Of a DNA stretch of 64,000 nucleotides, positions 1,329 through 46,868 are shown one piece after another. The stretch is from the NCBI RefSeq assembly GCF_000015665.1, contig NC_008817.1, positions 1-64,000 on the forward strand, in the 5' to 3' direction. Within the stretch, counting starts at the first letter, position 1. Each line of letters begins with the position of its first letter. Position numbers and translations under genes: made by a program. This DNA comes from Prochlorococcus marinus str. MIT 9515. GTDB lineage: Bacteria > Cyanobacteriota > Cyanobacteriia > PCC-6307 > Cyanobiaceae. The notes beneath the pieces are model-generated. The model searched no databases, was not told the origin of the DNA, and saw nothing but the letters and a program-made list of their open reading frames with translations.

Positions 1329-1329
1329 T

Positions 1330-2037
1330 TTGAAATTACCAAAAGAATTTTTATTAAGCGAATTATTAAGCCATAATGTAAAAGGTAATGCAACTCTTAA
1401 TTATGGCATAGGAGAAAACGTTTGGATGCATCCACCCGTTCATCGAATATTAGGTTGGTACTCTCGTCCGTCAAATTTAGATTTAAAACGCAATGTTTGG
1501 AAATTAAATCAAATAAGTCAAATAATTGATAATGATATTTATGTAAAAGGAGTTCCAGCAATTTCAGATTTGGCTACCTTGAATAGATTTCCTAATTTGA
1601 TAGAAGCTAATTTAGTAAATTCAGAAGGTTCAAAGATAGGTGTGATAGCAGATTTTTTATTTGAAATTAAAACTGGTAACATCAAGTTTTATTTAATTTC
1701 GCGTTCTAATCCCAGAATTCCTGGATCAAGCCGATGGAAATTAAATATACAAAATATTGTTGATCAGCAGCCTGGTTTGGTTTTTTGTTCATGTGTTTCT
1801 TTAGATGATTTGCCTTTGATTAAATCAAGTTTGAAATATCAGTTTTTAAAAAAAGGAAAAAAAATATTTGATCGCTTTGATGAATTTAAAAATACCGCAA
1901 CTAATAGATTAGAAAATTGGCTGGAAGAAGATGAAGATATAATCCAAAAAGAAGAATTTAATCGAAATAGTTTTTATAATAAAGATGATGAAATAAGATC
2001 TTTCAGAAATAAAAGAGAAGATGACCCTTGGATTTAA
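1330..2037 (+). CDS. PRC-barrel domain protein, conserved cyanobacterial hypothetical
   Basis: A 235-residue protein starting at TTG (1330), directly after the dnaN stop. The middle (about residues 85-140) has the beta-rich pattern of a PRC-barrel, for example EANLVNSEGSKIGVIADFLF followed by a second strand set ending in FYLISRSNPRIPG. The C-terminal quarter is charged and probably disordered (LEEDEDIIQKEEF). No signal peptide or membrane segment is visible. PRC-barrels occur in RNA-processing and photosystem assembly proteins; the specific function here is unknown. Conserved placement between dnaN and purL is what I recall for Prochlorococcus. The start could also lie a few codons further in, but no ATG is nearby. 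Confidence 0.8.
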   Translation: MKLPKEFLLSELLSHNVKGNATLNYGIGENVWMHPPVHRILGWYSRPSNLDLKRNVWKLNQISQIIDNDIYVKGVPAISDLATLNRFPNLIEANLVNSEGSKIGVIADFLFEIKTGNIKFYLISRSNPRIPGSSRWKLNIQNIVDQQPGLVFCSCVSLDDLPLIKSSLKYQFLKKGKKIFDRFDEFKNTATNRLENWLEEDEDIIQKEEFNRNSFYNKDDEIRSFRNKREDDPWI

Positions 2038-2040
2038 CTA

Positions 2041-4380: not shown

Positions 4381-4427
4381 TAATGAATAAATATTTGCAA
4401 TTGTTTAAAATTCTCAGAAATTAAATT

Positions 4428-5888: not shown

Positions 5889-5891
5889 ATT

Positions 5892-8333
5892 TTAATTTAA
5901 AAGATTATCTAGACTGGAACAATTTTCAAGAAATTCATCTTTTTCTAAATTGAGAAAATCAACATTAAGTATATTTTTATTAGGTTTAGAAGAAAATTTG
6001 GTTAAATTTATTCTTGCAGATTTATTTTTATTTGTCTCAAAATCGATATATTGATTATTTGTTAGAACTTTTATAAAATGATCATTATTAAGTTGAATTT
6101 TTTCGTTAATATATCCTAATTTTGAATTATAAGAATTATAAACTTCGTTAATTTTCAATTCAAAAAATTTGCCTTTATTTGATATCAAATAAAGTAAATC
6201 TTTCTCTTTACTTTTACAGCAAGAAACTATTTGTTCTTTAGGTAATAGATTTACTAATAATATTCCCTGTGATTGTTTGCTACTTGGCTTTAAATATTCA
6301 TTAGATAAATTAAATTTAAAAATTCTACCAATAGAAGTAAGTATTATTATATTTTCTTCTTGGCTATAAATAAATGAATCAATAATTTTTGTAGAATTTT
6401 TCAACTTTGTAATGGAAAATATTCTAGTACTTCTAATCATATCTTTATCTAATAAAACTTTTTTAAATTTTCCATCTGAACATATAATGCAAATATAATT
6501 TTCTAAGTTACTGTCTAAATCATGAAAATTTATAATTTCTTTTGGATTTATATTTCCTAAAATTTTGTTATCTAATTTATAGACATTATTAATTATAGAT
6601 TTCCAATTTATTTGAAGAACTTTACCCGAAGAGGTTACTCCTATGATTCTTAAACTCTTTTTAATATTACATATGAATTTTTGAACATTTTTATTTTCAA
6701 TAAATTTATTTTCTTGATCTAATAATTTTTTGTAATTATAGTAAATTAATTTTTTAAAATAAAATCTATTATCTATTGATATTTTTGCGTCTTTAATTAT
6801 AAGATCTTCTAATATTTGATTATTAATAGTATCTAATTCTTCAGATTGATTAATATCTTTTAAAATTTTTGTTTTTCTTTTTACATTAAATTTTTTCTTT
6901 AATTCAATTAGCTCTTTAATTAAAGTTTCAAGTAATAAACTTCTATTATTTAGAAGAGTACTAAGATATTTCTTTTTCTCAAAAAGTTGATTAATTTCAT
7001 TCTCTACCTGTTTTTTTTCTAAATTTGTCAATTTTTTAAGCGGCATGCTTAAGACTGCATCTGCTTGTTTATTACTGAGGTCAAGCTTTGGTATTAAAAT
7101 TGATTTCGCCTCAGAAACATTTTCTGAGTTTTGAATAATCTCAATTATATTTTTTATATTTTTAGTTGCTATTGAAAATCCTTCTAATATTTCAAGTTTT
7201 TCTGATGCAATTTTTAGAAAATATTTTGTTCTTTTTCTAATTGTTTCTTCTCTAAATTCTAGAAAATAATTTAAATATTTTCTTAGGGTAAGTTGTACGG
7301 GTTTGCCGTTTACTAAAGCTAATAATATTGCTCCGAAATTTGATTGTAATGTTGTTTTTTTGTATAAGTTTGATATTACAATTTCAGGATTAGAATCTTT
7401 TTTTAATTCAATAACTATTCTCATTCCATCTCTATCACTTTCATCCCTAATATCAGATATTCCATCAATCTTTCCAATATTTACTAATTCAGCAAGTTTT
7501 TCAATCCAACCGGCTTTACTAATTTGGTAAGGAAGTTCTGATATTATTAGCGCATTTCTTTTATGCTTTCCTTTCCCTAAATTAATTTCTTCACTTTTAA
7601 TAACACCTCGTATTGTTATGGATCCTCTTCCCTCTAGGTAAACATTTTTAATTCCATTATTGTAAAGTAATTCTCCTCCTGTAGGAAAATCAGGTCCTAA
7701 TATGATTTTAGATAATTTTGAGTCGCTAATATCTTTATCTCTTATTAGTGCAATTAAACCATCAATAATTTCACCCAAATTGTGTGGAGGAATATTTGTA
7801 GCCATCCCAACGGCAATGCCCGATGATCCATTTAATAATAAGAATGGTAATTGGGCAGGTAATATATCTGGTTCTTTTTGTGAGCCATCAAAGTTATTTG
7901 AGTAACTAACTGTATCAGTTTCAATTTCTTGAAGAAAACACTCATGAGCTATTGGTGCCAGACGTGTTTCGGTATATCTCATTGCAGCTGGTGGATCATT
8001 GTCAACTGATCCAAAATTCCCATGACCATCAAGAGTGGGATATTTTGTTGAAAAATCTTGAACCAACCTAACTAAGGCTTCATAAACTGCTTGATCTCCA
8101 TGAGGATGATATTTTCCTAGTACATCTCCAACAACTCTGGCACATTTCCTAAATGGTCTATCTGGAGTAAGTCCTAATTCATGCATTGCGAAAAGGATCC
8201 TTCTTTGGACTGGTTTCAAGCCATCTCTAGCATCAGGTAATGCACGTCCTACTATCACGCTCATCGCATACTCTAGATAGGAACGTTGCATTTCTTCTTG
8301 CAGCGAAATGGAAGTGAATTTTTCCTTAGTCAT
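5892..8333 (-). CDS. Type IIA DNA topoisomerase subunit A (GyrA/ParC family, ParC-like)
   Basis: An 813-residue subunit that cuts and rejoins DNA in gyrase or topoisomerase IV. The catalytic tyrosine is in [10 protein letters not shown], Tyr120 by my count. The N-terminal winged-helix region has [13 protein letters not shown] and GKYHPHGD. The C-terminal beta-pinwheel is Lys/Asn-rich and degenerate. I see no intact GyrA box (QRRGGKG), only a weak SSKQSQGI at the corresponding place, which favours a topoisomerase IV-like (parC) role over wrapping gyrase. A true gyrA should exist elsewhere. It is convergent with purF, with a 3-nt gap. Confidence 0.9.
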
Positions 8334-8420
8334 TAAATAGGCAAGTTACAGTGTTCGTTGGTAAACTAAATTAAGATTAATAGGTAAATAAATATTTTCC
8401 AGTATAAATATTGAGGAATT

Positions 8421-9275
8421 TTAATTTATTTTTGTTCTTGCAATAAATATTTCTTCTTTAAGTTTGTTATTTTCAAACAGTTTTTCAGTAGAGTTTTGTA
8501 GTTTTTCACCCCAAAGCTGTTCTTTTCTATAGTTATATTTAACGTAATTAGGTTCTTTTATTAAAGCTTTTTTTGCGAGAAAAATTGCTTCATTAATATC
8601 TTTAATACTTAAGCATGATGCAAGTGCTAATAGTGGTTCTGCGTTTTCTTCTATAGATATAGCTTTTTTGAAAGAGATAATAGAAAGATTTATATTATTC
8701 AATTCATAATATGCTAGTCCTTTATTATTAATCGCTTGCCAAAAATCTTTTTTAATTTCAATTGCTTTGTCAAATTCTTTTAAAGCTTTTTCATAATCTT
8801 TTTCCATCAAATATATGTTTCCTAATTGAAAAATGGCGTTAAAGTTTTCGGGTGCGATTTGAATACCTAATTCTAAAGAAATTTTTGCTTTTTTAATTTT
8901 TGCTTGTTTTAAATATATAGCGCTTTTTGCGAAATATATTTCACTCATTTTAGGATTAATTTTTTGAGCATTATTTAGTGAATTAAAAGCGTCTTCATAC
9001 AATTCGTTTGCTGTTTGTGCTTCAGCAAGAATCAACCATAAATTTTCATTTTTATCATTTATCTTGACAGCTAATTTTGCAAAATTAAGACTATCTTTGA
9101 TTTGACCAAAATATAAAAGTTGATATGCCTGTTTGCCAATTGATAAAGCTTCTTGTTCTAGATGTTTTGCATCAGGGAAATGATAATACGGGACTAAAGC
9201 TCTTAAATTTTGGGTATTAAAAATGTGGCAACTTATTATTGAAAAAAATAATAATTTTATGAAAGATTTTTGCAT
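8421..9275 (-). CDS. Exported TPR-repeat protein
   Basis: A 284-residue protein with a hydrophobic N-terminus (KLLFFSIISCHIF, about residues 8-20) that looks like a signal peptide. From about residue 48 it is a run of tetratricopeptide repeats, with typical positions such as AIFQLGNIYLMEKDYEKALKE and AINNKGLAYYELNNINLSI. TPR arrays mediate protein-protein contacts; no partner can be named. The gene lies 4 nt downstream of queG on the - strand and probably shares its transcript. It is in the cell envelope or thylakoid lumen if the signal peptide is real. Confidence 0.8.
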   Translation of the reverse strand: MQKSFIKLLFFSIISCHIFNTQNLRALVPYYHFPDAKHLEQEALSIGKQAYQLLYFGQIKDSLNFAKLAVKINDKNENLWLILAEAQTANELYEDAFNSLNNAQKINPKMSEIYFAKSAIYLKQAKIKKAKISLELGIQIAPENFNAIFQLGNIYLMEKDYEKALKEFDKAIEIKKDFWQAINNKGLAYYELNNINLSIISFKKAISIEENAEPLLALASCLSIKDINEAIFLAKKALIKEPNYVKYNYRKEQLWGEKLQNSTEKLFENNKLKEEIFIARTKIN

Positions 9276-35041: not shown

Positions 35042-36628
35042 ATGGGAAAAAATTTATTAAAAAAAGAGAGAGATCCTTCAATATTAATATTAGATTTTGG
35101 ATCTCAATATTCCGAACTGATTGCAAGAAGAATACGAGAGGCAAACGTATTTTCTCTCGTTGTAAGCAACTTTATTTCTACTAAAGAGATTCAGGATATA
35201 AATCCTCAAGGGATTATTTTAAGTGGGGGCCCAAATTCTGTATATGAAGATAATGCGCCTAAATGTGACCAAAACATTTTCAATTTAGGTATTCCAGTTT
35301 TGGGTATATGTTATGGAATGCAATTAATGGTTAAAGAGTTAGGGGGTACCGTTACTCCAGCAAATAATAGATCTGAATATGGAAGGGCTCCAATCAAAAT
35401 TGATTTCGAAAGCGATTTGCTTTCTAGTGTTAAAGATAAATCAATTATGTGGATGAGCCATGGAGATTCTATAAATCACTTACCTAATGGTTTTATTAAA
35501 ATTGCTCATACAGAAAATACGCTTCATGCTGCAATATCAAATAAAGAAAAAAAGTTATTTGGTGTTCAATTTCATCCTGAAGTAATTCATTCAGAGTATG
35601 GAATGACTGTAATTAAAAACTTTGTTTACTCTATTTCGAAATGTAAGGCAGATTGGAATACTGAAACTTTTTTAGAGGAAACAATCCCAAGAATTAAGGA
35701 ACAAGTGGGTGATAAGAAAGTTTTACTTGCTCTTTCAGGGGGAGTGGATTCATCAACTCTTGCTTTTCTTCTCAATAAAGCTATTGGTAAGCAGCTTACA
35801 TGTATGTTTATAGATCAAGGTTTTATGAGAAAAGGTGAACCTGAATTTTTAATGGAATTTTTTGCTAAAAAATTTCATATTAAAGTTGAATACATCAATG
35901 CTAGGGAAAGATTTCTACATAAATTAAATGGAGTAACTGATCCAGAAGAAAAACGTAAAATTATTGGTGGGGAATTTATTAGAGTTTTTGAAGAGGAAAG
36001 TCACAGATTAGGTCCTTTTGAATATTTGGCTCAAGGTACTCTCTACCCAGATGTTATTGAAAGTGCTGGAACGAATTTAGATCCCAAGACTGGTGAGCGT
36101 ATCGCAGTAAAAATAAAAAGTCATCATAATGTAGGTGGTTTGCCAAAAGATTTGCAATTTAAATTAGTTGAACCATTAAGAAAACTTTTTAAAGATGAGG
36201 TAAGGAAACTTGGTAATGCTCTTGGATTACCTGATGAAATTATTAAAAGACATCCATTTCCAGGCCCGGGCTTAGCAATAAGAATTTTAGGTGAAGTTTC
36301 TATTGAAAAACTCAACTGTTTGAGAGATGCAGATTGGATAGTAAGAGATGAAATAAAAAAAGCAGGACTTTATAATGATATTTGGCAAGCGTTTGCTGTC
36401 CTTCTACCTGTGAAAACTGTCGGGGTGATGGGAGACAAAAGAACTTATGCTTGGCCAGTGGTTTTACGATGTGTATCAAGTGAAGATGGAATGACGGCAG
36501 ATTGGTCAAGAATTCCTTACGAAACCTTGGAGAGGATTTCTAACAGAATTGTTAATGAAGTAGCTCAGGTGAATAGAGTTGTTTTCGATATTACTAGCAA
36601 GCCTCCAGGGACAATTGAGTGGGAGTGA
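35042..36628 (+). CDS. guaA: GMP synthase (glutamine-hydrolysing)
   Basis: A 528-residue enzyme converting XMP to GMP. The class I amidotransferase has Cys90 in LGICYGMQL and the His/Glu pair in [11 protein letters not shown] (about 176). The ATP-pyrophosphatase loop is [14 protein letters not shown] near 230. The C-terminal dimer domain ends [11 protein letters not shown]. It is complete. The 3' end of guaA is a known integration hotspot in bacteria, and its last seven codons (GTIEWE plus stop) are repeated about 4 kb downstream at 40611-40632. Confidence 0.98.
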
Positions 36629-36666
36629 AGAGTAGGGTATAAACCCAGTTATAGACTCAAAAACTT

Positions 36667-36688
36667 GGTTTCCCGTAGGTTTCCCGTG
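36667..36688 (+). repeat. 11-bp tandem doublet (iteron-like)
   Basis: Two adjacent 11-bp units, GGTTTCCCGTA and GGTTTCCCGTG, one helical turn each. A second doublet starts exactly 61 bp further on at 36728. Spacing of one DNA turn suggests side-by-side protein binding on one face of the helix, as for integrase arm sites or replication iterons. The binding protein is unknown. Confidence 0.85.
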
Positions 36689-36727
36689 GAAATTTTATAA
36701 CCTATTTGCAATGGATCTCAGCAGTGA

Positions 36728-36749
36728 GGTTTCCCGTGGGTTTCCCGTG
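36728..36749 (+). repeat. 11-bp tandem doublet (iteron-like)
   Basis: Two adjacent copies of GGTTTCCCGTG. Position relative to the first doublet (61 bp) is the same as in the right-hand repeat, although the base sequence of the units there has drifted to GGTTTCACATG. The spacing appears conserved more strictly than the bases. Confidence 0.85.
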
Positions 36750-36829
36750 GAGTGAAAATCCTGTCTCTATAGAGAAATCGTAGAGTTTTAAATTTCTCTA
36801 CACTGTCCAAAACTTAAAGAATGTGCAAC

Positions 36830-39763
36830 TTATTTTCTTTTAGGGAATTCGTGAGATTTTTTTTCTTCCCAAACCCATCCTCTAATACTCTCTAATAGAT
36901 TTTTTATCTCTTTAGATAATTTCCCATTTTTATAATCTAATCTTCGTCTTGTAACCCACTTCCCTAGAGGACTATATTTTGGCGGAAATGTATTACCATT
37001 ACTTGACTGAAATTCTCTTAAATCTTTAATTTTGCGATTTAAAAATTCTTTTTGGGTATCAAAAACAAATCCTAATTCCTCTAAAAGATTAATTTCAGAT
37101 TGCAATAATTTATTTTTTTTATAATCGTTCCTCAAACGATTTACCCACTTTCCAAGTGCCTCGTCACTCTGAGGAGGGTTTGCATGACCATATTTAAGTT
37201 TAAATTCTTTTAAATCCTTAATCTTTTGATTGAAATAGTCTTTCCTAAGGTCAAAAACAAAACCAATATCTCTAAGTAATTCCAAACGTTTTTTTGGATA
37301 ATTTTTACCTTTACTTCTGCTTCTTTCTGACATTGTCCAAAGATATAGTGAATGTTCTTTTGGTGGATTAGAGTGACCATGCTCTAACTTGAATAGTTTT
37401 AATTTTTCGAAATTTGAATCCCATCCTTCAGAAATTTTGATATCCCAATTAATATTCAAATTATTTAAGAGATTTATATATTTTTTTGGCAATTTTCCGT
37501 TCTTATATAATTTTTTTTGACCATGTAACCATCTACCAACTTCACTCCTATGGGGTGGAATAACATGCCCATGTTTTAATTTAAACTCTTTTAATTGCTT
37601 TAACTTATTCTCCCAGTTCTCTTCATCTGGTTTCCAATTAAAATTTATACTGTCTAAAAGATTGATTCGATCTTTGGATAAAAAACCCTTATTTTTAAAT
37701 TTTCTTTGATCTTTGACCCAATTCAAAAAAGCAGGATCTCTATTAGCAATCATGAGATTATTAGTATCTACAAAAGACTTATATTCTCCAAATTTTTCTA
37801 ACCAATCATCGGAAGTATTTCTTATTAATAAAGTTTGAATAGAATTAGCAAAATTTTTACTAATTTTGTTAGGTAGATCAAAAATAATTTTTTCTAAACC
37901 ACTTTTACCTCCTGTTTGTCTTTGATCGATTCCTAAATTTACTCGTAATAGATCAATTGTTTGGAGAAGAGAATCATCTTGACATTTAAGAGCAAGAATT
38001 ATTTGCCAAACATCCTTAAATTTTGATTCAAGTATTTTTTCTTCTGGTTTATCCATATCTGCAAGATAAACTGGTATGACGATAGTTCCAATTGATTTGT
38101 CTTCACTTTTCCGAATTGCCCTGCCAACTGCTTGAATAATATCAATTTGACTTTTTCTGGGATCAATAAAAGCAATTCCATCAAGATTAGGAACATCAAC
38201 ACCCTCTGATAAGCACCTTGCATTACATAAAATTCCTAATTCATTTCCATCTATATTTTTTAATTTGTTAATACGTTTATTTCTCTCTTTTGCGGGCATA
38301 TCTCCCGAAATATTCGTAATAAAATTATTACTTTGAAAATTTTCAAATTGTGATAACCAATTGATGATTTTATTATGCTGATGTGCAAATTCTCTAGCAC
38401 TATTGATTCGACTATGAAAAGTAATTAATCTATTTAACTTATGATCTTTTGTTGCTTTTGCAAGTGCAATATGACTTGCAAGAGTCTCTGCGTCAGTATT
38501 TAATTCATCAGGTATTGTAACCAAGTCTCGATTGTTTATTTTTTCATGAACCATAGGATCATCAACTCCAACCACTACAACTTGATAATCAGATAAAAGT
38601 TTCTTTTCAATTGCTTTTGAGAAATTAAGTTGATAAAAAATATCTCCAAATAAAGATTTATCATCCATTGAAATAACTGAAATCTCATTAATTTTTGCTT
38701 GTGTTTTAATTTGTTTTGAGAGAATTCTTGGAGTAGCAGTAAAGAATAATCTTTTTGATGCTTTTATTTTTCTTTCATCTAATACTGAACCAAAAGAATC
38801 AGATACTTTTCCTGCACAACGATGTGCTTCATCTGCAATTACGAGATCAAAATCATCGGTGTCATGATGCTCTTGTGCTTCTACTATCAATTGTGCAGAT
38901 TGATAAGTTGAGAAAACAACTTTAGGACTACTTTCATCTAAAAAAAGTTTAATTTCTAATGGATCATTTGTAACTGGAACCCCAATTTCTGACGTATTTG
39001 AAATCCATTCGTCTTCCTTTTTATCTTTTGCAACTGATTTATCAGAGCAAACACAAATCCACTTAAAGTCATGATTTGCTTCAGAATTCCATTCTTTCAG
39101 AGTTTGAGAAAGAAGACTTAAAGATGGAACTAAAACTAAAACTTGTTTCGCTTTCATTTTTTCTTTAATCCATAAAGATGTAAGAGTTTTACCAGTTCCA
39201 CATGCCATTAGAACTTGACCACGATCAGCAGTTTTTAATCTTTCAGAAACTTTTTCAATTGCTTCGATTTGATGTGGTCTAGGAGTCTTTTTCTTTTTTC
39301 TTTTACCTTGATTAAGGTCTTCCATTGATGAAGGAAATTCAATTTCAGATTGTCTGAACTGTTCTAATAAAAAACAGACAACTTGCTTTTCTTGACGATT
39401 AATTACCTGTTGAGCATTCTTTCCAATTCCATCAGTACTTGCGATTAATAATCTTCCATCAATTTTCGAGTCACTCGATTCACTTAAAAAACTATCTATT
39501 TCAGATTTCTTAATATCATTATTTGGTGAAACACATTTTGATTGAACTGCCCAGGTCTTCCCATTCTTTTGAGTAAAGATTAAATCTATTCCGCAATCAG
39601 CACCCCATCTCTTTGGATAATCATTCCATAACCACACTTCATCTATTTGACTTGCCCATGTCGGATCAGTCTTAAGAAACCATTTAACGAATTTTTCAAA
39701 TTGCTTTCCTCTAATCCCAATATCAGGATCTAAGGAAGCATAAAATTCATCAAAGGTTGCCAA
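36830..39763 (-). CDS. Nuclease-helicase with helicase-associated repeats
   Basis: A 977-residue protein in four parts. Residues 20-100 look like a restriction-endonuclease (Mrr/PD-(D/E)XK) domain, with Asp60, then Gln74-x-Lys76 in GIDLIF and AVQSK. A superfamily 2 helicase follows: Walker A ACGTGKT (about 187-193), DEAH in IADEAHRC (about 305), FTATPR, and QAVGRAIRKSE (about 560). Residues about 690-970 hold five helicase-associated (HA) repeats of about 65 residues, with recurrent LKEFKLKHGH and LGKWV patterns. It likely translocates on DNA and cuts. Defence is inferred, by analogy to type I/III-like single-chain enzymes. It lies between two guaA-type repeats with the GIY-YIG gene divergent beside it. 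Confidence 0.88.
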   Translation of the reverse strand: MATFDEFYASLDPDIGIRGKQFEKFVKWFLKTDPTWASQIDEVWLWNDYPKRWGADCGIDLIFTQKNGKTWAVQSKCVSPNNDIKKSEIDSFLSESSDSKIDGRLLIASTDGIGKNAQQVINRQEKQVVCFLLEQFRQSEIEFPSSMEDLNQGKRKKKKTPRPHQIEAIEKVSERLKTADRGQVLMACGTGKTLTSLWIKEKMKAKQVLVLVPSLSLLSQTLKEWNSEANHDFKWICVCSDKSVAKDKKEDEWISNTSEIGVPVTNDPLEIKLFLDESSPKVVFSTYQSAQLIVEAQEHHDTDDFDLVIADEAHRCAGKVSDSFGSVLDERKIKASKRLFFTATPRILSKQIKTQAKINEISVISMDDKSLFGDIFYQLNFSKAIEKKLLSDYQVVVVGVDDPMVHEKINNRDLVTIPDELNTDAETLASHIALAKATKDHKLNRLITFHSRINSAREFAHQHNKIINWLSQFENFQSNNFITNISGDMPAKERNKRINKLKNIDGNELGILCNARCLSEGVDVPNLDGIAFIDPRKSQIDIIQAVGRAIRKSEDKSIGTIVIPVYLADMDKPEEKILESKFKDVWQIILALKCQDDSLLQTIDLLRVNLGIDQRQTGGKSGLEKIIFDLPNKISKNFANSIQTLLIRNTSDDWLEKFGEYKSFVDTNNLMIANRDPAFLNWVKDQRKFKNKGFLSKDRINLLDSINFNWKPDEENWENKLKQLKEFKLKHGHVIPPHRSEVGRWLHGQKKLYKNGKLPKKYINLLNNLNINWDIKISEGWDSNFEKLKLFKLEHGHSNPPKEHSLYLWTMSERSRSKGKNYPKKRLELLRDIGFVFDLRKDYFNQKIKDLKEFKLKYGHANPPQSDEALGKWVNRLRNDYKKNKLLQSEINLLEELGFVFDTQKEFLNRKIKDLREFQSSNGNTFPPKYSPLGKWVTRRRLDYKNGKLSKEIKNLLESIRGWVWEEKKSHEFPKRK

Positions 39764-39855
39764 GATTTTATTTGACTAAAACTTTTCTTTTTTATCATTT
39801 TAAATAATCTGTCAATTATTATTAGGAAGACTTTCTAATTAGTGATAATTCTCAA

Positions 39856-40464
39856 ATGGAAGGAAGTGTTTATGTTCTAACCAATCCAGCAATGCCGAAC
39901 ATGGTGAAGATTGGCAAGACGACAAGAGATGTAGAACTTAGACTTGCAGACTTATATTCAACTGGGGTCCCTTTGCCTTTTGAATGTGAATATGCAGCAA
40001 AAGTGAAAGATGTAGATAAGACAGAAAAAGCATTTCATACAGCATTTGAACCAAGCAGAGTTAATCCAAAAAGAGAATTTTTTAATATCAATCCAGAACA
40101 GGCAATTGCTGTTTTATCTTTAATGGCGATTGAAGATGTTACTCCAAGTGTTCAGGATGAAGCAAAAAAAATTGACGTAGAAGCATCTGCTTCTGCTGAG
40201 AAATTCAAGAAGAAGAGAAGACCTACTATTAATTATTTTGAGATGGGTTTAAAAGAAGGAGATATTTTAAAATTTGGTAGAAATGAAGAGTTTTGCAAAG
40301 TATTGAATGGAAGACAAGTTTCTTATCAGGGAGAACCTTGGTTTTTATCAAATTTAACTAATAAGTTATTAGATAGAACTGGTCCTATGGATGGATCGCC
40401 TTATTGGTATTTCAATGGTAAAAATCTTAAAGATATTTACAATGAAACTTATTCAATTGATTAA
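39856..40464 (+). CDS. T5orf172/GIY-YIG-type protein with DUF4357-like C-terminus
   Basis: A 202-residue protein. Residues 3-100 are a T5orf172 (GIY-YIG superfamily) domain: GSVYVLTNPAMPNMVKIGKTT, DVELRLADLYSTG, then EKAFHTAFEPSRVNPKREFF. The C-terminal part (about 128-200) resembles DUF4357: MGLKEGDILKF, VSYQGEPWFLSNLTNKLL, GSPYWYFNGKNL. Such proteins are common in phages and islands and are thought to be DNA nucleases or binding proteins. It is divergent from the nuclease-helicase (92-nt spacer), so the two may share regulation and work together; that is inference. Confidence 0.87.
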   Translation: MEGSVYVLTNPAMPNMVKIGKTTRDVELRLADLYSTGVPLPFECEYAAKVKDVDKTEKAFHTAFEPSRVNPKREFFNINPEQAIAVLSLMAIEDVTPSVQDEAKKIDVEASASAEKFKKKRRPTINYFEMGLKEGDILKFGRNEEFCKVLNGRQVSYQGEPWFLSNLTNKLLDRTGPMDGSPYWYFNGKNLKDIYNETYSID

Positions 40465-40522
40465 TTTTCAATATTTGATGAATTTTTAGTCTTTTTTTAA
40501 ATAAAAAATCATCCTAAAAAGA

Positions 40523-40544
40523 GGTTTCCCGTAGGTTTCCCGTG
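40523..40544 (+). repeat. Isolated third 11-bp doublet inside the cassette
   Basis: GGTTTCCCGTA followed by GGTTTCCCGTG, identical to the first doublet of the left repeat, sits 58 nt after the GIY-YIG stop and about 148 bp before the first doublet of the right repeat. It has the undiverged sequence of the left copy, unlike the doublets in the right copy. It may mark an arm site belonging to the integrated element. Confidence 0.8.
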
Positions 40545-40610
40545 GGAAAATGTGTGTTATTATGGCGTTAAACATGTTGGTATCACTACGTTTATGACTG
40601 CCTTATTTCT

Positions 40611-40807
40611 CGGTACTATAGAGTGGGAATAAAATGCAGGGTATAAACCCAGTCATAGTCTAGAAAAATTGGTTTCACACAGGTTTCATACGAGAATCTT
40701 GTAACCTATTGGCAAGGGATCTCTATATGGAGGTTTCACATGGGTTTCACATGGAGGTAAAAATCTATCTCTATAGAGAAATCGTAGAGAATTAAATTTC
40801 TCTACAC
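40611..40807 (+). repeat. Right copy of ~195-bp direct repeat (possible attR) with guaA tail remnant
   Basis: Begins GGTACTATAGAGTGGGAATA and encodes GTIEWE then stop, as in guaA, but with different third bases (GGT for GGG, ACT for ACA, ATA for ATT, GAA for GAG, TAA for TGA). All coding differences are synonymous. It then repeats the left copy's block order, including doublets at 40671-40692 and 40732-40753, 61 bp apart. The palindrome TCTCTATAGAGA and following ten bases are identical to the left copy. It reads as a displaced guaA 3' end. Confidence 0.78.
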
Positions 40808-40816
40808 CTTAATAAA

Positions 40817-41134
40817 TTAGTTTTTAATTTTTTTAATTTTTTCTAAATTCCATTTATCAAATATTAATTTCATTTCTCTTTCGTAGTATCTTACTTTCTT
40901 TGCGAAAGGTAGTTGTTGAATAATTATTCCAAAGGGAAATTTTAAAAAAGAAGAAACATAAACAATATAAAACTCGATAAATGAAGGTTTTGGTGGGAGA
41001 GGTAAATTTTTTAAATATGCCCAATCAATGCATGGTTTTAGTTGCTTATCACTAGCGATAATATTTTTTTTACATCTCCACCAAGAGAATAGATAAATGC
41101 AAATAAAAATTGGTAGTGGAAGAAGTCGCAACAT
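40817..41134 (-). CDS. Hypothetical protein with N-terminal hydrophobic segment
   Basis: A 105-residue protein unknown to me. The N-terminus (LRLLPLPIFICIYLFSWW, about 2-19) is probably a membrane anchor. A Pro-rich NLPLPPKPSFIEFYIVYVSSFLKFPFG region follows, then a basic C-terminus (KWNLEKIKKIKN). It lies just outside the right guaA repeat. Base composition is like the neighbours. Confidence that it is translated is moderate. Confidence 0.55.
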   Translation of the reverse strand: MLRLLPLPIFICIYLFSWWRCKKNIIASDKQLKPCIDWAYLKNLPLPPKPSFIEFYIVYVSSFLKFPFGIIIQQLPFAKKVRYYEREMKLIFDKWNLEKIKKIKN

Positions 41135-41350
41135 TAGAAATCTTTTACTTTATTTTATTCATCCTCTTCAGGATGATGAGGATCTGGATTTGGAGGAATT
41201 GCAGCATTATATTCTTCCGACGTTGCTTCTCCTGTCAAAGTAAAAACTAATTTATTTTATTGATTATCTTTTGCATCATTTTCTATTTGACATCAGAACT
41301 AAACTTAGAGGAATGCAACATTCTTTTTTTATAGTTTTATTTTTTGACTA

Positions 41351-41818
41351 ATGGGAAAGGAAACTTATCAAATAACAGAATATGTTCATGATCAGGTTAT
41401 TGCTCATTGCATTGCTTTCGGACTTATAGGTACTGATGAACCTAAAGAAGATAAAAATAATTTAATTGATTTTTATGAATTAGAGAGTTTTAATCCACCG
41501 GATACTATTCAAGTCGCAACATTTTTTTTGGAAAAAACCTCCACAAAAAAAATATATTATTATGTCTGCTCTTTTCCGGAAGAACCTTTTAAGGCGAGTC
41601 ATCAAGAAGGATATGTACTTTTCTCTATTATGTGGTTGGATTACGACAAATACTGGTCTAGAGTCCCATGGTACAGTTGTTCTGCATCATCTGAACAACC
41701 TCTACCACCTTTACATAAAGAAGCAGCAAATTGGATGTTAGAGCAAATAACTAAAAAAGGTTGTTGGAATGCTGAAGCGGATTTCTTCAAAATGGGCAAA
41801 CTAGAAATATTAATTTAA
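41351..41818 (+). CDS. Hypothetical protein
   Basis: A 155-residue protein with ATG start and no recognised domain. It is rich in aromatics (YYYVCSFPEEPF, MWLDYDKYWSRVPWYSC), lacks membrane segments, and contains six cysteines. The N-terminus KETYQITEYVHDQVIAHC looks helical. A soluble cytoplasmic protein is likely. Nothing in the context gives a role; it is in the variable region after the guaA cassette. Confidence 0.65.
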   Translation: MGKETYQITEYVHDQVIAHCIAFGLIGTDEPKEDKNNLIDFYELESFNPPDTIQVATFFLEKTSTKKIYYYVCSFPEEPFKASHQEGYVLFSIMWLDYDKYWSRVPWYSCSASSEQPLPPLHKEAANWMLEQITKKGCWNAEADFFKMGKLEILI

Positions 41819-41827
41819 ATTAAAGAC

Positions 41828-41974
41828 TTAATTCATTCTTACATCAACCCATCCAGGAAGATATACATCAATACCTCCAAATAATTTTATATTTAGAGGT
41901 AGTGTGAGAATAGAAAGTGCGACTAATGTTGTTGCTATAGGTTGACTATATTTTAATAGTGTTTCTTTGTCCAT
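41828..41974 (-). CDS. Very small membrane protein (48 aa)
   Basis: An ATG-started frame of 48 residues, MDKETLLKYSQPIATTLVAL and then SILTLPLNIK, ending GWVDVRMN. A central hydrophobic segment (about 12-33) is flanked by charged residues, with a second half carrying LFGGIDVYLPGW. The organisation, codon use and complete start/stop favour a real gene, and it resembles the short single-pass proteins frequent in picocyanobacteria. It is convergent with the 155-residue gene (9-nt gap). Confidence 0.6.
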   Translation of the reverse strand: MDKETLLKYSQPIATTLVALSILTLPLNIKLFGGIDVYLPGWVDVRMN

Positions 41975-42379
41975 GGGAATAAAATGATTTACCAATAGAT
42001 AGCATTTAGAATTGTCTTTGAGAAGAAATTAAACATGAATAAAAACACGTATAAAAATCCTAAAAATGATTTGGTTTTTGTCCCAGTTAGTGCCACAAAG
42101 AGTCAAATGGAATTACAATCTCTCTGTTGAAATTTTCATAAATTAAATTTATTAGTGTATTTAATTTAAAGTAATTCATTTTTAGCATATTCATATAATT
42201 TTGTATCGAACGAAATTTCAAAGGAAAAATAATTTTATACAGTAATAAAAATGTTCAATTCGTATGATGATATTCTCAATTATTTTTTGTTTAAACTAAG
42301 AATAAACTAATAATTTTGAGATGTCATGACCATTTGGAGCTGAAAACAAATACTCAAGGCGTCGTATCGTTAATATTAA
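41975..42379. other. Gene-poor spacer, about 400 bp
   Basis: AT-rich sequence between the 48-residue gene and the acyltransferase. One 31-codon + strand frame (42035-42130, starting MNKNTYKNPK) is present but too short to support. No tRNA, strong hairpin or repeat is evident. It probably holds the start of the leftward 48-aa gene's promoter and the end of the acyltransferase transcript. Confidence 0.5.
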
Positions 42380-44251
42380 TTATTTTGACCGAATAAAAGT
42401 TTCGATAGTATCGCTAAGTTTCATTGCTTCTTCTGAAGTTAGATGATTTTCATCTCTGTACCTTATCGTATTGTTGTTATGATTTTTGCAGTATTGTTCT
42501 GGGCAAAGAATAGAAAATATATCAACATAGGAGATTTTTTTGTTTTTTAATAGAAATTGTTTGATCTTCCCAATAGAAATTTTATTAGAAGCAAACCATT
42601 CGCTCTTTTTTAGTTCTCCAAAACAAAGAGGAGATATCGCCCACGATGGCCTGAACCATTCTTCTTGACAGGTATATCCTCCTTTCAATTTTGTAAAAGT
42701 TGGGGTGGGCGATATGAGAAAAAATTTCATTCCTATATTTTGAGTTTGATTTACGAAAGTTTGATATTGTTTTGTCCAGTCTCTCCCGTTTCTGTACTTA
42801 TCTATATGTGCTGAAAAAATAATAATGTCTTCTTTTTTGAAGTTATTTTTATATTCTCTCAGAGGTGCAAGTACATGTTCTTCCATCCCTGTATTTAATA
42901 GTTTTAGTCCATCCCCTTGTGGATGCATTATGAAATTGAATTCTTTTTTGTTAGCTAAATGAGTCATTACTGCTCCATAGTGACCAGTATGACTATCTCC
43001 AATTAGATATATTGTTGGGAGAGTGGAATTATGAGTGATTTTGGTCTCTCTATAATTTTTCATATTCCATTTATTGTATTGATTACCTATAAATAATTTT
43101 CCTTTTAGTGGTTTTCCAAGCGTAATCAGAACACTAGCAACGGTAACTATCATGCCTCCTCCAAAGATGATTGTCTTCCATCGTTTTCCATACCAGTTCC
43201 CTTTACGAAGTGGCGTTTCGACATATCTATACGAAGCAATCGCAGTTCCAAATATTAATGCGATCTGGAAGGGTACCGACCACCAATGAATTCCTATTGT
43301 CCAACGACTTATTGAAAGAATACCCCAGTGCCACAGGTAAAGCGAATAAGAGATCAAACCTACATAGACGACTTTAGGATTCGTAAAAAATGTATATGCT
43401 ACTGTTCCTTTCGTCATAGAAGCAATAAGCACTGCCGAAAGACCAACTACTGCAACTGTCGATTCTGTTGCCCAAGACATCGGCAAAAACATTATCCCGA
43501 CTATTAATGCCAGGACGAGAAGGGGTGGGACCTTCTCAAGGAATTCTCCTGTAGATTTTCTCTTTTGTAATTCAATAAATAATAAACAACCTAATGCCAT
43601 TTCCCAGAACCTTGTTGGCATTGAAAAATATGCTGTTGATTGGTTGATTTGATAGAGGTAAAGAAACCCAATTAATGAGGTAATTGTTAATGCCCCAACG
43701 GTAAGAAACAAATTGCGAGCACCATTTTTAGTTTGACGTCCAAACCCAGAAAACCAAATCAGAAAAGGAAAAAGGATATAAAACTGTTCTTCAACCCCCA
43801 GAGACCAAGTGTGTGTGAAAATATTCAGTTCTATTGATTGTGCGAAGTAATCTGTTGATTGTTTTAGTAGGTATAAATTTGATAATCCAAATAACGATGT
43901 AAGACCTGTTAGTAGAGAAGATCTTGGCACTGGATTAAATAAGCAGATAAAAATACTTGTGATGAATACAAAAACCGATAGTGCTGGTACTAATCGCTTT
44001 ATCCTTCTTTCGTAAAAGCCGCTAATAAAATCACGGAAGTTTTTACTTGGTCTTTGATAAAGCGATGAAGTAATAACAAATCCTGATATGACAAAAAAGA
44101 TATCAACGCCTAGGTATCCGCCCGGAAGAATTTCTTTGTTGAAGTGGTTGATGATTACAGTTATAACTGCAAATGCTCTTAGACCATCAATCTCTGAACG
44201 GTAGCGATTTTTTATATATGATTTATTGTCCTTGATTTTGACTGACATCAA
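42380..44251 (-). CDS. OafA/YrhL-type acyltransferase with SGNH domain
   Basis: A 623-residue membrane protein. Residues about 15-370 form the acyltransferase-3 domain with some ten transmembrane helices: RSEIDGLRAFAVITVIINHF contains the catalytic His, then GGYLGVDIFFVISGFV and HTWSLGVEEQFYI. The C-terminal SGNH hydrolase domain has GDSHTGHY (about 418) and the closing DENHLT. It transfers acetyl or other acyl groups to cell-surface polysaccharide, here plausibly the lipopolysaccharide O-chain. Such genes vary between strains and alter phage receptors. It is alone on the - strand. Confidence 0.92.
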   Translation of the reverse strand: MMSVKIKDNKSYIKNRYRSEIDGLRAFAVITVIINHFNKEILPGGYLGVDIFFVISGFVITSSLYQRPSKNFRDFISGFYERRIKRLVPALSVFVFITSIFICLFNPVPRSSLLTGLTSLFGLSNLYLLKQSTDYFAQSIELNIFTHTWSLGVEEQFYILFPFLIWFSGFGRQTKNGARNLFLTVGALTITSLIGFLYLYQINQSTAYFSMPTRFWEMALGCLLFIELQKRKSTGEFLEKVPPLLVLALIVGIMFLPMSWATESTVAVVGLSAVLIASMTKGTVAYTFFTNPKVVYVGLISYSLYLWHWGILSISRWTIGIHWWSVPFQIALIFGTAIASYRYVETPLRKGNWYGKRWKTIIFGGGMIVTVASVLITLGKPLKGKLFIGNQYNKWNMKNYRETKITHNSTLPTIYLIGDSHTGHYGAVMTHLANKKEFNFIMHPQGDGLKLLNTGMEEHVLAPLREYKNNFKKEDIIIFSAHIDKYRNGRDWTKQYQTFVNQTQNIGMKFFLISPTPTFTKLKGGYTCQEEWFRPSWAISPLCFGELKKSEWFASNKISIGKIKQFLLKNKKISYVDIFSILCPEQYCKNHNNNTIRYRDENHLTSEEAMKLSDTIETFIRSK

Positions 44252-44381
44252 AACTTACTAACCAATAGTTATAAGTTTATTGGATTTTATATCCTTTTTC
44301 AAAAGGGTGCTGTAATACTTTTCAAGTTTAAGTATCTCCCCTTTTATCTATTCCCATTCTACTTTTTTAGGTTTTTATGGA

Positions 44382-44732
44382 ATGATTTCTTCAAATGTTA
44401 TTAATACTCTTGAATCGACTATTCAGAAAGATACTTATGTAGTGAGACGAATATATTGGCTTTGTATCCCTATCAGATTTTGATGAGCCGAGTGAAGTTG
44501 AAATAAAAACTTACAAAAGGGACGGAAATTTATTTTTAAAAACGTATCAGTATGGAAAAGATTATTTTCTATATAAAAAGACAATAATGCATTTATTGTT
44601 TTAACAAAGATATCTGTTTATCCAAATGTTTTAATAACGATAATATGTAAAAATAAAAAAACTTTTTATGAGAACTATTTATCTACTTTGCCAACTTTCG
44701 CAAAAGAATCTGCAAAATTCTTAGTTGGTTAG
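44382..44732 (+). pseudogene. Small gene broken by two compensating frameshifts
   Basis: Read in one frame, the start (MISSNVINTLESTIQKDTYV) runs out near 44445. It continues in the +1 frame from about 44446 (DEYIGFVSLSDFDEPSEVEI, then KTYKRDGNLFLKTYQYG) and returns to the original frame near 44580 (KDNNAFIVLTKISVYPN, ending KESAKFLVG, stop at 44730). The composite would be about 116 residues. Each piece reads like protein, which random frames rarely do. Family unknown. Sequencing errors at A-runs could also cause this. Confidence 0.6.
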
Positions 44733-44998
44733 TGCATTATTTCTCGATAATTTATTCATTAACTTTAAAAAAGGGCAAAGACACAGCAGTTTAAGTTTTA
44801 CGCGAGTTTTATGCGTAAAAACTTTTACCCAAATCGTATTTATAGATGCAATTATTTCTAAAGGTCTTATATAGATGTAATTAAGGTAAGCTAACAACTT
44901 TTTATAATTTACCGTCAAAATGTGCAAATTAATAAAATTGCAAGTAATAATACTCTATTAATTTCAAGTTAACAGGAGGATAATATAGACATAGATCT

Positions 44999-45004
44999 AG
45001 GAGG
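44999..45004 (+). promoter_or_regulatory. Strong ribosome binding site of the CP12-tail-like gene
   Basis: AGGAGG lies four bases before the ATG at 45009, a near-ideal Shine-Dalgarno. Another AGGAGGA is at 44974-44980. Strong sites like this are uncommon among the genes in this window, so it supports the chosen start and suggests high expression. Confidence 0.75.
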
Positions 45005-45008
45005 TCTT

Positions 45009-45191
45009 ATGAAATTATTCAATCAATTTAACATCCTTCCAAGATACTTAACTGCGTTTAACTATGCAGGATTAAATCTTAACGAAACCCCAAAAGAACT
45101 TGATAAATGTACTCCTGAGTTTCAAAATTTTTGGGATAAAGAATGTAGAGAACATCCAACTAATCAAAATTGTTTAATTTACTGTGACTGA
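45009..45191 (+). CDS. Small protein with CP12-like C-terminal motif
   Basis: A 60-residue protein beginning MKLFNQFNIL. The last 15 residues, CREHPTNQNCLIYCD, share the spacing of the CP12 GAPDH-binding tail: Cys, Pro four residues later, a second Cys nine residues after the first, then Tyr and Asp at +3 and +5 (CP12: C..NP....CR.Y.D). The N-terminal CP12 Cys pair is missing; one other Cys is upstream (DKCTPEF). CP12 clamps GAPDH and phosphoribulokinase in the dark. Relation to CP12 is inferred from this motif only. Confidence 0.6.
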   Translation: MKLFNQFNILPRYLTAFNYAGLNLNETPKELDKCTPEFQNFWDKECREHPTNQNCLIYCD

Positions 45192-45327
45192 GTTATTAAT
45201 TTTTAGTCTTAGTTAAATAAACTCTTCCTAAAAAGAGACTTCAATAATTTTAATCAACAAAAAACTTTTCTTTGAAGAAGGAATTGCTCACTCTTGATTC
45301 AATCAAGATACTTCCAACTATGTTTTT

Positions 45328-46151: not shown

Positions 46152-46868
46152 ATGGATGAAGTTATTAAATTAAGTAGGTCTACTGTTGAAAAATATCTTA
46201 ATTGCCCTAGATGTTGCGTTCTTGATAAAAAGCATAAAATAAAACCTCCATCTTTACCCTTTACTCTAAATATTGCGGTAGATAATTTATGTAAAAATGA
46301 GTTTGATTATTACCGCGATTTGCAGGAACCTCATCCTTTATTTCTTAAGCATAATATTGAAGCTGTTCCTTTTAAACATGAAGATATAGATATTTGGAGA
46401 AGTAACTTTAAAGGGATAAGATACAAATCCTTTGAGCATCAGTATGATTTCGGTGGTGCTGTTGATGATGTTTGGCAAAAAAAGAATGGAGAGCTTATTA
46501 TCGTTGATGTAAAAGCAACGTCACGAAATAATTTTGATTGGTTAGAAACTTTTAATAAATATGATTATGCAAAAGCATATAAAAGACAATTAGAAATGTA
46601 TCAGTGGTTATTTAGAAAAAATGGTTTCAAAGTTGCAGATGAAGCCTATCTTCTTTATTTCAATGGAAAAAAGAATGAAAAGTTTTTTAATAATCAGTTA
46701 AAATTTGATGTCCATTTTATAAAGTTAGATTGTTCCTCATTATGGGTAGAAAGCAAAGTTATTCAAACAGTAAAGCTACTTAGGTCTAATGATTTTCCTC
46801 TGCCTTCTCTAAATTGTGAATATTGTAATTATTTAAAAAAGCGTTGGCAATTGTCAAAAATTAATTAA
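46152..46868 (+). CDS. PD-(D/E)XK nuclease superfamily protein, Cas4/RecB-like
   Basis: A 238-residue protein. The nuclease core is visible: Asp105/Asp106 in GGAVDDVW, Asp119-x-Lys121 in IIVDVKATS, and Gln146 with Tyr150 in KRQLEMYQWL. Cysteines at 18, 21 and 22 (LNCPRCCVLDK) and a CEYC pair near the end (NCEYCNYLKKRW) could hold an Fe-S cluster, as in Cas4 and AddB. No cas genes or repeat arrays are nearby, so CRISPR is not implied; this matches a stand-alone family seen in many bacteria. Starts 143 nt after the Yfr2 terminator. Confidence 0.83.
   Translation: MDEVIKLSRSTVEKYLNCPRCCVLDKKHKIKPPSLPFTLNIAVDNLCKNEFDYYRDLQEPHPLFLKHNIEAVPFKHEDIDIWRSNFKGIRYKSFEHQYDFGGAVDDVWQKKNGELIIVDVKATSRNNFDWLETFNKYDYAKAYKRQLEMYQWLFRKNGFKVADEAYLLYFNGKKNEKFFNNQLKFDVHFIKLDCSSLWVESKVIQTVKLLRSNDFPLPSLNCEYCNYLKKRWQLSKIN

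What the first reader, a model, noticed from the sequence alone, without database searches (positions are those of the whole stretch)
36830..40464. Possible two-gene defence cassette: nuclease-helicase plus T5orf172 protein
The divergent pair joins an Mrr-like nuclease/SF2 helicase with five helicase-associated repeats to a T5orf172-DUF4357 protein. Both families are enriched in phage and mobile DNA contexts. They form the whole cargo between two att-like repeats. No methylase is present, so any self/non-self rule is not methylation by a linked enzyme. The HA repeats may sense DNA structure.
Basis: inference. Interest (0 to 1): 0.72.

Follow-up and report, generated by a model that had tools for sequence, protein, structure and literature searches.

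The report
Mobile restriction-gene cassette beside guaA
In a Prochlorococcus genome two DNA-cutting, probably virus-fighting genes sit together inside a small mobile DNA cassette that has lost its own integration enzyme and lies in a known landing site for such cassettes at the end of the guaA gene; the two genes are independent cargo rather than one system, and one of them carries a repeated domain that may be a modular DNA reader.

Summary
The "att-like repeats" are attachment sites: a GAGTGGGARTRR core at the guaA stop codon with 11-bp tandem arms at +50 and +111, and at the far end one arm 98 bp before a second core. The right-end pattern occurs 49 times in 46 of 266 genus genomes, never in the reversed control. 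Arm type agrees at both ends in 36 of 38 distinct cassettes; permutation maximum 18. Thirteen tyrosine integrase genes (two with a stop) lie directly after guaA; this genome has none. It is a non-autonomous, CIME-like cassette. Helicase (15/265) and T5orf172 gene (24/265) are adjacent only here. The helicase is a Type ISP (LlaBIII-like) nuclease-motor with HA repeats in place of methylase and recognition domains. The small protein is a GIY-YIG nuclease with a CcrM/MPND-like C-terminal domain. Defence by each gene alone is likely but untested. Boldest reading: a translocating restriction nuclease addressed by a tandem-repeat reader.

The parts
35042..36628 (+). guaA (GMP synthase); its 3' end is the target site
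   Evidence: used as guaA reference (gene name from recognition of the sequence, not from a family search)
36617..36628 (+). left attachment core GAGTGGGAGTGA (guaA stop codon included)
   Evidence: contains the GIsul2 site 5'-GAGTGGGA-3' (PMC9376610, passages)
36667..36689 (+). left arm 1, GGTTTCCCGTA GGTTTCCCGTG (core start +50)
36728..36750 (+). left arm 2, GGTTTCCCGTG GGTTTCCCGTG (core start +111)
36830..39763 (-). Mrr nuclease - SF2 (Type ISP-like) ATPase - five HA repeats, 977 aa
36854..37813 (-). HA repeat array (residues about 651-970)
39856..40464 (+). GIY-YIG (T5orf172) nuclease with CcrM/MPND-like (RAMA, recalled name) C-terminal domain, 202 aa; PADLOC PDC-S57
40523..40545 (+). right arm, GGTTTCCCGTA GGTTTCCCGTG, exactly 98 bp before the right core
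40621..40632 (+). right attachment core GAGTGGGAATAA; also the left core of the next cassette
40671..40754 (+). left arms (40671, 40732) of a second cassette, TCACAYR type
40817..45191 (.). second cassette, partly decayed: ORFs 40817-41134 (-), 41351-41818 (+), acyltransferase-SGNH 42380-44251 (-), 60-aa ORF 45009-45191 (+)
46152..46868 (+). first native gene after the array (PD-(D/E)XK-like); its relative lies 48 bp behind guaA in the empty site of genome G015

Best explanation
The finding is the cargo of a 4,004-bp integrated cassette (core 36617 to core 40621) at the 3' end of guaA. A tyrosine integrase joined a circular form at the core GAGTGGGA, which rebuilt the end of guaA and left a second core at the far end; a second cassette follows. 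The 11-bp tandem repeats are the arm sites that the integrase binds. The cassette has no integrase, so it can move only when an integrase of matching arm type is supplied by another guaA element, in trans or by cis-mobilisation (inferred), or be exchanged by homologous recombination. The two cargo genes are independent restriction-type genes. The large protein is a Type ISP-like nuclease-ATPase without methylase; its HA array probably supplies the DNA recognition that the methylase and target-recognition domains supply in Type ISP enzymes, and starts translocation and cleavage (inferred). The small protein is a GIY-YIG nuclease aimed by a RAMA-like domain, perhaps at modified or specific DNA (inferred). 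Shown by computation: architecture, site geometry, arm matching, integrases at guaA, lack of such an integrase in this genome, independence of the genes. Inferred: mobility now, arm binding, anti-phage function, recognition.
For: Right-end geometry: 49 sites in 46 of 266 genomes, 0 with the reversed pattern; 48 of 49 have exactly 98 bp from arm to core although 92-102 were allowed (the genomes are related, so sites are not independent). guaA lies upstream on the same strand in 44 of 49; the other five are on contigs or stretches where no guaA was found. Arm type agrees at both ends in 36 of 38 distinct cassettes; permutation mean 8.2, maximum 18 of 20,000. Arrays keep two or three different types paired in order in G049, G064, G024, G095. 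13 of 14 integrases with at least 36% identity lie directly after guaA; none of 17 weaker ones has guaA in the flanks held. By eye, integrase elements have arms of the window's type in G095, TCACGTR in G517 and G514, TCACAYR in G276, TGTTGCG in G183. No such integrase in G000. Empty site in G015. T5orf172 DNA is 92-93% identical where guaA is 76-83% in the three other cassette genomes. LlaBIII match E 1.4e-92 over residues 17-608, with the D...QxK, GTGKT and DEAH motifs aligned. CcrM Z 11.1, MPND-DNA Z 8.7.
Against: Mobility is not shown: no circular form was seen, and 0 viral contigs carry the right-end pattern. For two common arm types (TCCCTCA, ACACGTG) no integrase was found in the genomes searched. 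The exact 98-bp spacing holds for GGTTNC arms, which is what could find; in integrase elements with other arms the right arm begins about 90 (G183) to about 110 bp (G026) before the core. Two of the 13 integrase frames hold a stop codon (G341, G475). Two of 38 cassettes have unlike ends. 33 of 74 core-to-core intervals were not counted (28 lacked a clear tandem arm at one or both ends, 5 were 147-148-bp units with one arm). Cargo-less units of 138-148 bp fit arm-to-arm deletion better than core-to-core recombination. Defence is inferred from families; some cargo in other cassettes is not defence (MreB, a MurA-like enzyme, TPR proteins).
Confidence: 0.72

Rival explanations
1. A true two-gene defence system: nuclease-helicase and GIY-YIG protein act together.
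For: Divergent, 92 bp apart, sole cargo of one cassette; both match PADLOC models.
Against: Adjacent in 1 of the 15 helicase genomes and 1 of the 24 T5orf172 genomes; 0 of 25 T5orf172 loci in the genome collection has the helicase nearby; no T5orf172 or GIY-YIG product is listed beside the three plasmid helicases read with 4-kb flanks, where the gene table is incomplete.
Confidence: 0.06
2. The T5orf172 protein is a selfish homing-type nuclease and not a host defence gene; it spreads itself between loci.
For: T5orf172 proteins are treated as homing endonucleases in phages (PMC10448857, passages). The gene occurs at guaA in four genomes and about 0.2 kb from a tRNA-Asn gene in two others, at 91-93% DNA identity in six of seven relatives and 86% in the seventh.
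Against: In the window it is not inserted in another gene; its full length matches the defence candidate PDC-S57 (E 1.5e-76); the C-terminal part is CcrM/MPND-like, not the CapR, DUF723 or DUF4397 domains that the passages name.
Confidence: 0.2
3. The cassettes are moved only by homologous recombination between guaA and the repeat blocks; the att sites are fossils.
For: No integrase in the cassette or for this site in the genome; repeat blocks of about 196 bp; cargo-less 138-148-bp units look like arm-to-arm deletions; an integrase remnant with a stop lies behind guaA in G077.
Against: Arm type pairs within each cassette, also inside arrays of mixed types; exact spacing is kept in 48 of 49; integrases with matching arm types occur in the genus and family.
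Confidence: 0.25
4. The repeats are a structured RNA or terminator downstream of guaA, not attachment sites.
For: The left repeat includes a possible stem-loop and is intergenic (by eye).
Against: No Rfam match there at E up to 1; the far copy is 4 kb away behind unrelated genes; cores, arms and integrases as above.
Confidence: 0.03

Closest known systems
CIMEs (cis-mobilizable elements) and tandem accretion at gene 3' ends (PMC5704250, passages; Dehalococcoides ssrA islands, PMC3146451, passages)
   Same: attL and attR kept, integration genes absent, tandem arrays beside elements that have an integrase
   Different: Not shown to come from a conjugative element; cassettes are small (median 2,669 bp of 41); each carries paired arm repeats of one of several types
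guaA-targeting islands such as GIsul2 (PMC9376610, passages)
   Same: Site 5'-GAGTGGGA-3' at the 3' end of guaA; that paper reports that the guaA integrase also excises and integrates the CR2-sul2 unit, a part of the island between att sites
   Different: Different hosts and cargo; relation of the integrases not tested here
Prochlorococcus tycheposons (Hackl 2023, not held; seen only through PMC10872708 passages, and PMC10187409 passages)
   Same: Same host; tyrosine recombinase; cargo-carrying
   Different: Described in those passages at seven tRNA genes; here the target is guaA and the window cassette has no recombinase
Type ISP restriction-modification enzymes LlaBIII and LlaGI (PDB 4xqk, 5ffj)
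   Same: Mrr nuclease and SF2 ATPase over residues 17-608
   Different: No methylase found; HA repeats in place of coupler, methylase and recognition domain
PDC-S57 (PADLOC candidate)
   Same: Full-length match of the T5orf172 protein, E 1.5e-76
   Different: None seen; function of PDC-S57 not known to me
TAL-effector repeats (recalled analogy only)
   Same: Conserved scaffold with hypervariable positions; repeat number varies
   Different: Unrelated three-helix repeat of about 60 residues; recognition not shown

Membership tests
CIME / integrase-less att-flanked element | attL and attR of site-specific recombination present | tested here: met
   (by sequence; recombination not assayed)
CIME / integrase-less att-flanked element | no integration or transfer genes inside | tested here: met
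   two genes only; Pfam
CIME / integrase-less att-flanked element | derived from an integrase-bearing element | tested here: inconclusive
   arm-matched integrase elements exist; integrase remnant seen in G077 only
CIME / integrase-less att-flanked element | mobilised by a related element | not testable with these tools
   needs an excision and integration assay
Tycheposon | integration at a tRNA gene | tested here: not met
   target is guaA; no tRNA in the window
Tycheposon | own tyrosine recombinase | tested here: not met
   none in the cassette; genome hits at 0.40 and 0.53 Mb only
Type ISP restriction-modification enzyme | Mrr nuclease plus SF2 ATPase in one chain | tested here: met
Type ISP restriction-modification enzyme | methyltransferase and target-recognition domain in the same chain | tested here: not met
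   Pfam shows only HA stretches after the helicase part
PDC-S57 | full-length profile match | tested here: met
   residues 2-200 of 202 on 5-208 of 212, E 1.5e-76
GIY-YIG (T5orf172) nuclease | profile match and conserved catalytic pattern (Tyr, KIG, Arg, Glu) | tested here: met
   Y6, K18-I19-G20, R29, E57 invariant in 14 of 14 aligned; pattern recalled
RAMA domain (name recalled) | fold of CcrM C-terminal / MPND domain | tested here: met
   CcrM 270-357: Z 11.1, rmsd 2.2, 82 aligned; MPND-DNA: Z 8.7, rmsd 2.8, 78 aligned
RAMA domain (name recalled) | Pfam profile match | tested here: not met
   no second domain at E up to 0.1

The most novel reading that the evidence does not exclude
The HA array is a modular, evolvable DNA-address reader, like TAL or zinc-finger repeats. 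It is fused to a Type ISP-like translocating nuclease, which makes a restriction enzyme that needs no methylase because its long address is absent from, or avoided in, its own genome. Arrays change address by gaining, losing and mutating repeats, and travel in guaA cassettes and elsewhere. Evidence: 2 to 11 repeats on a constant nuclease-motor; a conserved scaffold whose three most variable columns (29, 32, 37), with 33 and 36, fall in helix 2 of a predicted three-helix repeat (pLDDT 90); pN/pS at these five columns is above that of the other columns in 15 of 15 arrays (one a near tie, 0.72 against 0.70), including seven from distant plasmids that were not used to choose the columns. Against: I chose the columns from the Prochlorococcus arrays and partly by position; columns 6 (helix 1) and 22 (loop), as variable as 36, lie outside helix 2 and are raised in 13 of 15 arrays too; pN/pS at the five columns is below 1 in 5 of 15; the periodicity signal is weak (p 0.03 and 0.02); structure search of the repeat found nothing.
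Probability: 0.27. Interest if true: 0.88.

Novelty: new variant of a known kind. Interest (0 to 1): 0.62.

Why it matters
Prochlorococcus has small streamlined genomes, and its integrative elements described in the passages I saw sit at tRNA genes. A second, guaA-based cassette system, with right ends in at least 46 of 266 species genomes and restriction and other genes as cargo, would be a compact route by which an abundant phototroph gains and swaps phage-resistance genes. Paired arm types predict which integrase can move which cassette. The HA-array nuclease raises a testable question: can a tandem-repeat reader replace the recognition half of a Type ISP enzyme?

Tried and rejected
Two-gene system: rejected on distribution. 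Structured RNA: no Rfam match at the repeats; the only hit in 9 kb (SNORD51, 26.9 bits against a cut-off of 50) is noise. Cassettes packaged as phage: 0 viral contigs with the right-end pattern; integrase relatives in viral contigs only at 23% identity and none in phage records; no relative of the helicase and one distant relative of the T5orf172 protein in viral contigs. Solved relatives of the T5orf172 protein by sequence: none. Fold of the HA repeat: Foldseek gave one match at E 6.6 and the second aligner none; this does not show that the fold is new. A comparison of integrase and arm distances crashed in extraction and was dropped. A first codon analysis used columns off by one and was redone for 10 arrays and for 15 of 15. 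Only the seven distant plasmid arrays are an independent test of the chosen columns.

Rows left out: one search kept 41 of 74 core-to-core intervals (28 lacked a tandem arm at one or both ends, 5 were 147-148-bp units whose left and right arm are the same sequence). The cargo census used 48 of 60 cargo families; genes of the two integrase-bearing elements were left out, and the tool shows only the best 25 families. Alignment A4 used 13 of the 25 loci plus the window. A draft of this report gave the helicase family three arm types; one member is a 22% relative only, so two remain.
Full report
What is there. The window is the first 64 kb of a 1.70-Mb genome in one contig; the closest relatives of its T5orf172 protein in the genome collection are Prochlorococcus genomes, most of them single-cell or metagenome assemblies by their titles. 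The two ORFs of the finding are correct. The large protein has an Mrr_cat_2 nuclease, a ResIII/DEAD ATPase with Helicase_C, and five HA stretches; the small one has a T5orf172 domain. PADLOC gives a Type IIG-like match for the first (residues 18-610, E 1.7e-148) and PDC-S57 for the second (E 1.5e-76).

The ends. The 196-bp repeat starts in the last codons of guaA. Read in detail it is an attachment-site block: a core GAGTGGGAGTGA at 36617, then two copies of a tandem 11-bp arm at +50 (36667) and +111 (36728). The far end has one arm at 40523, exactly 98 bp before a second core at 40621. That core starts a further block with arms of another type at +50 (40671) and +111 (40732). So the cassette runs from 36617 to 40621, and a second, partly decayed cassette follows, up to about 45.2 kb (by eye). 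The native neighbour of guaA starts at 46152. In genome G015 a relative of that gene lies 48 bp behind guaA with no cassette, which is the empty site.

Relatives. DNA similar to the left block, in part only over the end of guaA, occurs in 60 of 121 genus genomes. The right-end pattern (GGTTNC arm pair, 75-85 bp, core) occurs 49 times in 46 of 266 genomes and never in the reversed control; 48 of 49 have one and the same spacing. In the stretches that I fetched, 44 of 49 lie downstream of guaA on its strand; five are on contigs or stretches where no guaA was found. Among 74 core-to-core intervals, 46 have tandem arms at both ends; five of these are 147-148-bp units that hold a single arm and were set aside. 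Of the remaining 41 (36 genomes, 38 distinct), 36 of 38 have the same arm type at both ends, against a permutation mean of 8.2 and a maximum of 18 in 20,000. Four genomes carry two or three such cassettes of different types, each paired with itself. Cassette length: median 2,669 bp, range 707-8,620.

Integrases. In G095 the element directly after guaA encodes a 454-aa tyrosine recombinase (Pfam Phage_integrase, E 1.3e-10) and has arms of the window's type, GTTTCCCGT. A search with it finds five genomes of 265 with a long match at 38% identity or more, a 46-residue piece in G077, and eight weak matches in seven more genomes. A family-wide search (18 of 300 genomes match; G183 is in both searches) adds nine strong ones. 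Of these 14 strong loci, 13 have the integrase directly after guaA; two of the 13 frames hold a stop codon (G341, G475). None of 17 weaker relatives has guaA in the flanks held (nine, eight); the G077 piece does. By eye the 13 have tandem arms of several types: TCACGTR in G517 and G514, TCACAYR in G276, TGTTGCG in G183, TCACC-type in G449 and G475. Cassettes without integrase that carry TCACGTR, TCACAYR and TCCCGTR arms are common. In integrase elements the right arm lies 98 bp (G095) to about 90 (G183), 100 (G009) and 110 bp (G026) before the core, so the exact spacing is a feature of the GGTTNC arms. The window genome has no such integrase and only two Phage_integrase matches, at 0.40 and 0.53 Mb. 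The G077 piece, with a stop codon behind guaA, is a sign of decay in one case.

Cargo. 48 representative cargo families from cassettes without an integrase were scanned. They include Type I restriction, methylase and specificity proteins, Eco57I and N6 methylases, MADS-like matches, PLD and T5orf172 proteins, but also MreB, an EPSP/MurA-like enzyme, a DnaB-like protein and TPR proteins. Defence genes are frequent but not the only cargo. The helicase family occurs in complete cassettes of two arm types (G000, G049) and the T5orf172 gene in two (G000; G139 and G168), so cargo and ends are exchanged.

The two genes are independent. Helicase: 15 of 265 genomes. T5orf172: 24 of 265. Both: three genomes, 1.36 expected, P = 0.14; adjacent only in the window genome. 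None of 25 T5orf172 loci found in the genome collection has the helicase within the DNA held. T5orf172 DNA is 92-93% identical between the window and G060, G139 and G168, where guaA is 76-83% identical, which supports recent transfer. It also occurs 0.2 kb from a tRNA-Asn gene in two genomes. The helicase has relatives on plasmids (765 records, 126 with at least 80% of the query covered; best 39% identity over 91%); no T5orf172 product is listed next to the three that I read with 4-kb flanks.

How the large protein may work. Residues 17-608 match LlaBIII, a Type ISP enzyme, at E 1.4e-92, and 156-611 match LlaGI; the nuclease D...QxK, the GTGKT and the DEAH motifs align. In Type ISP enzymes a coupler, a methylase and a recognition domain follow, target binding starts ATP-driven translocation, and cleavage needs two converging enzymes (PMC7049714, listing and passages; PMC4666363, listing). 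Here HA repeats follow instead. The number of repeats is 2, 5, 5, 7, 7, 7 and 11 in the seven proteins counted. Across 52 Prochlorococcus repeats the most variable columns are 32, 29 and 37, then 6, 22 and 36, while Trp30 and Arg35 are nearly fixed; 43 repeats of plasmid relatives show a similar profile (Spearman 0.67), with 22, 26, 33 and 29 highest. pN/pS at columns 29, 32, 33, 36, 37 is above that of the other columns in 15 of 15 arrays, for example 1.54 against 0.69 in the window protein and 1.45 against 0.33 in the 11-repeat protein, with one near tie (G078, 0.72 against 0.70); it is below 1 in five. Columns 6 and 22 are raised in 13 of 15 arrays too, but not in the window protein (0.39). 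A repeat of the window protein is predicted as three helices (pLDDT 90); the five positions fall on residues 32, 35, 36, 39, 40, all in helix 2, while 6 and 22 fall in helix 1 and the loop before helix 2. I infer a DNA-reading surface centred on helix 2; binding is not shown.

How the small protein may work. Tyr6, Lys18-Ile19-Gly20, Arg29 and Glu57 are invariant in 14 aligned sequences. The model (mean pLDDT 81.5, pTM 0.48) has a GIY-YIG part (At-HIGLE Z 6.3 and Slx1 Z 6.2, both under the level that the tool calls safe) and a C-terminal part that matches CcrM residues 270-357 (Z 11.1, rmsd 2.2, 82 aligned) and the DNA-bound MPND domain (Z 8.7, rmsd 2.8, 78 aligned). From recall, this is the RAMA domain, linked to adenine methylation. 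I infer a nuclease aimed by DNA sequence or modification.

Novelty. guaA islands with this core, CIMEs and tandem islands at gene ends are known. In the held library, Prochlorococcus with guaA (6 papers), with guaA and integration (1), and with GMP synthase and genomic island (1) gave no paper whose listing concerns such cassettes in Prochlorococcus; I did not read those papers. The tycheposon paper itself is not held, and it may mention guaA. Of 22 papers holding 'helicase associated domain' or PF03457, none of the 12 listed concerns bacterial restriction by its title. I therefore file the cassette as a new variant of a known kind.

Noticed in passing
G031 (L096), G047 (L100), G042 (L107), G125 (L164), G255 (L190), G003 (L108), all directly behind guaA: Cargo-less units of 138-148 bp between two cores; in five of the six a single arm pair sits about 50 bp after the first and 98 bp before the second core. 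They look like products of recombination between the left and right arms, which leave a scar.
   Followed up: partly
window 45009-45191 and eight other loci: A conserved 60-aa ORF (MKLFNQFN...NCLIYCD) on the strand of guaA, 46 bp before the right arm in L073, L076, L077 and L082; no Pfam match. Possibly a small regulator of excision.
   Followed up: no
L159 (G009), L160 (G183), L161 (G026), L081 (G095): Integrase-bearing guaA elements of 6.5-8.6 kb share a 216-266-aa protein with an HLHILME-like motif (HUH-like, recalled), a protein of 314-327 aa and a serine resolvase-like gene near the right end (Pfam Resolvase tested in G009 and G183); G009 and G183 also have a DUF5906-like ATPase, over the Pfam cut-off in G183 only.
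   Followed up: partly
L086, L087, L090, L091, L093 behind guaA: Extra copies of mreB, and in L086, L087 and L091 of a MurA/EPSP-like gene, as cassette or island cargo.
   Followed up: no
window 44796-44818 and 45197-45241: Decayed arm-like repeat (GTTTTACGCGAGTTTTATGCG) and a decayed right end resembling that of cassette 1, so the array probably once held more units (by eye).
   Followed up: partly
L061 (G081), L062 (G114): T5orf172 gene lies about 0.2 kb from a tRNA-Asn gene, another kind of integration context.
   Followed up: no
L092_1, L081_15, L087_5 and others: Several guaA-region loci carry TPR proteins that share a leader like MKKRTAFIGAILSL; one also has a matrixin-like peptidase stretch below the Pfam cut-off.
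   Followed up: no
G031 C8 and G111 C22 (L049, L050): Relatives of the nuclease-ATPase module in open frames of about 1,600 aa, probably full restriction-modification fusions.
   Followed up: no
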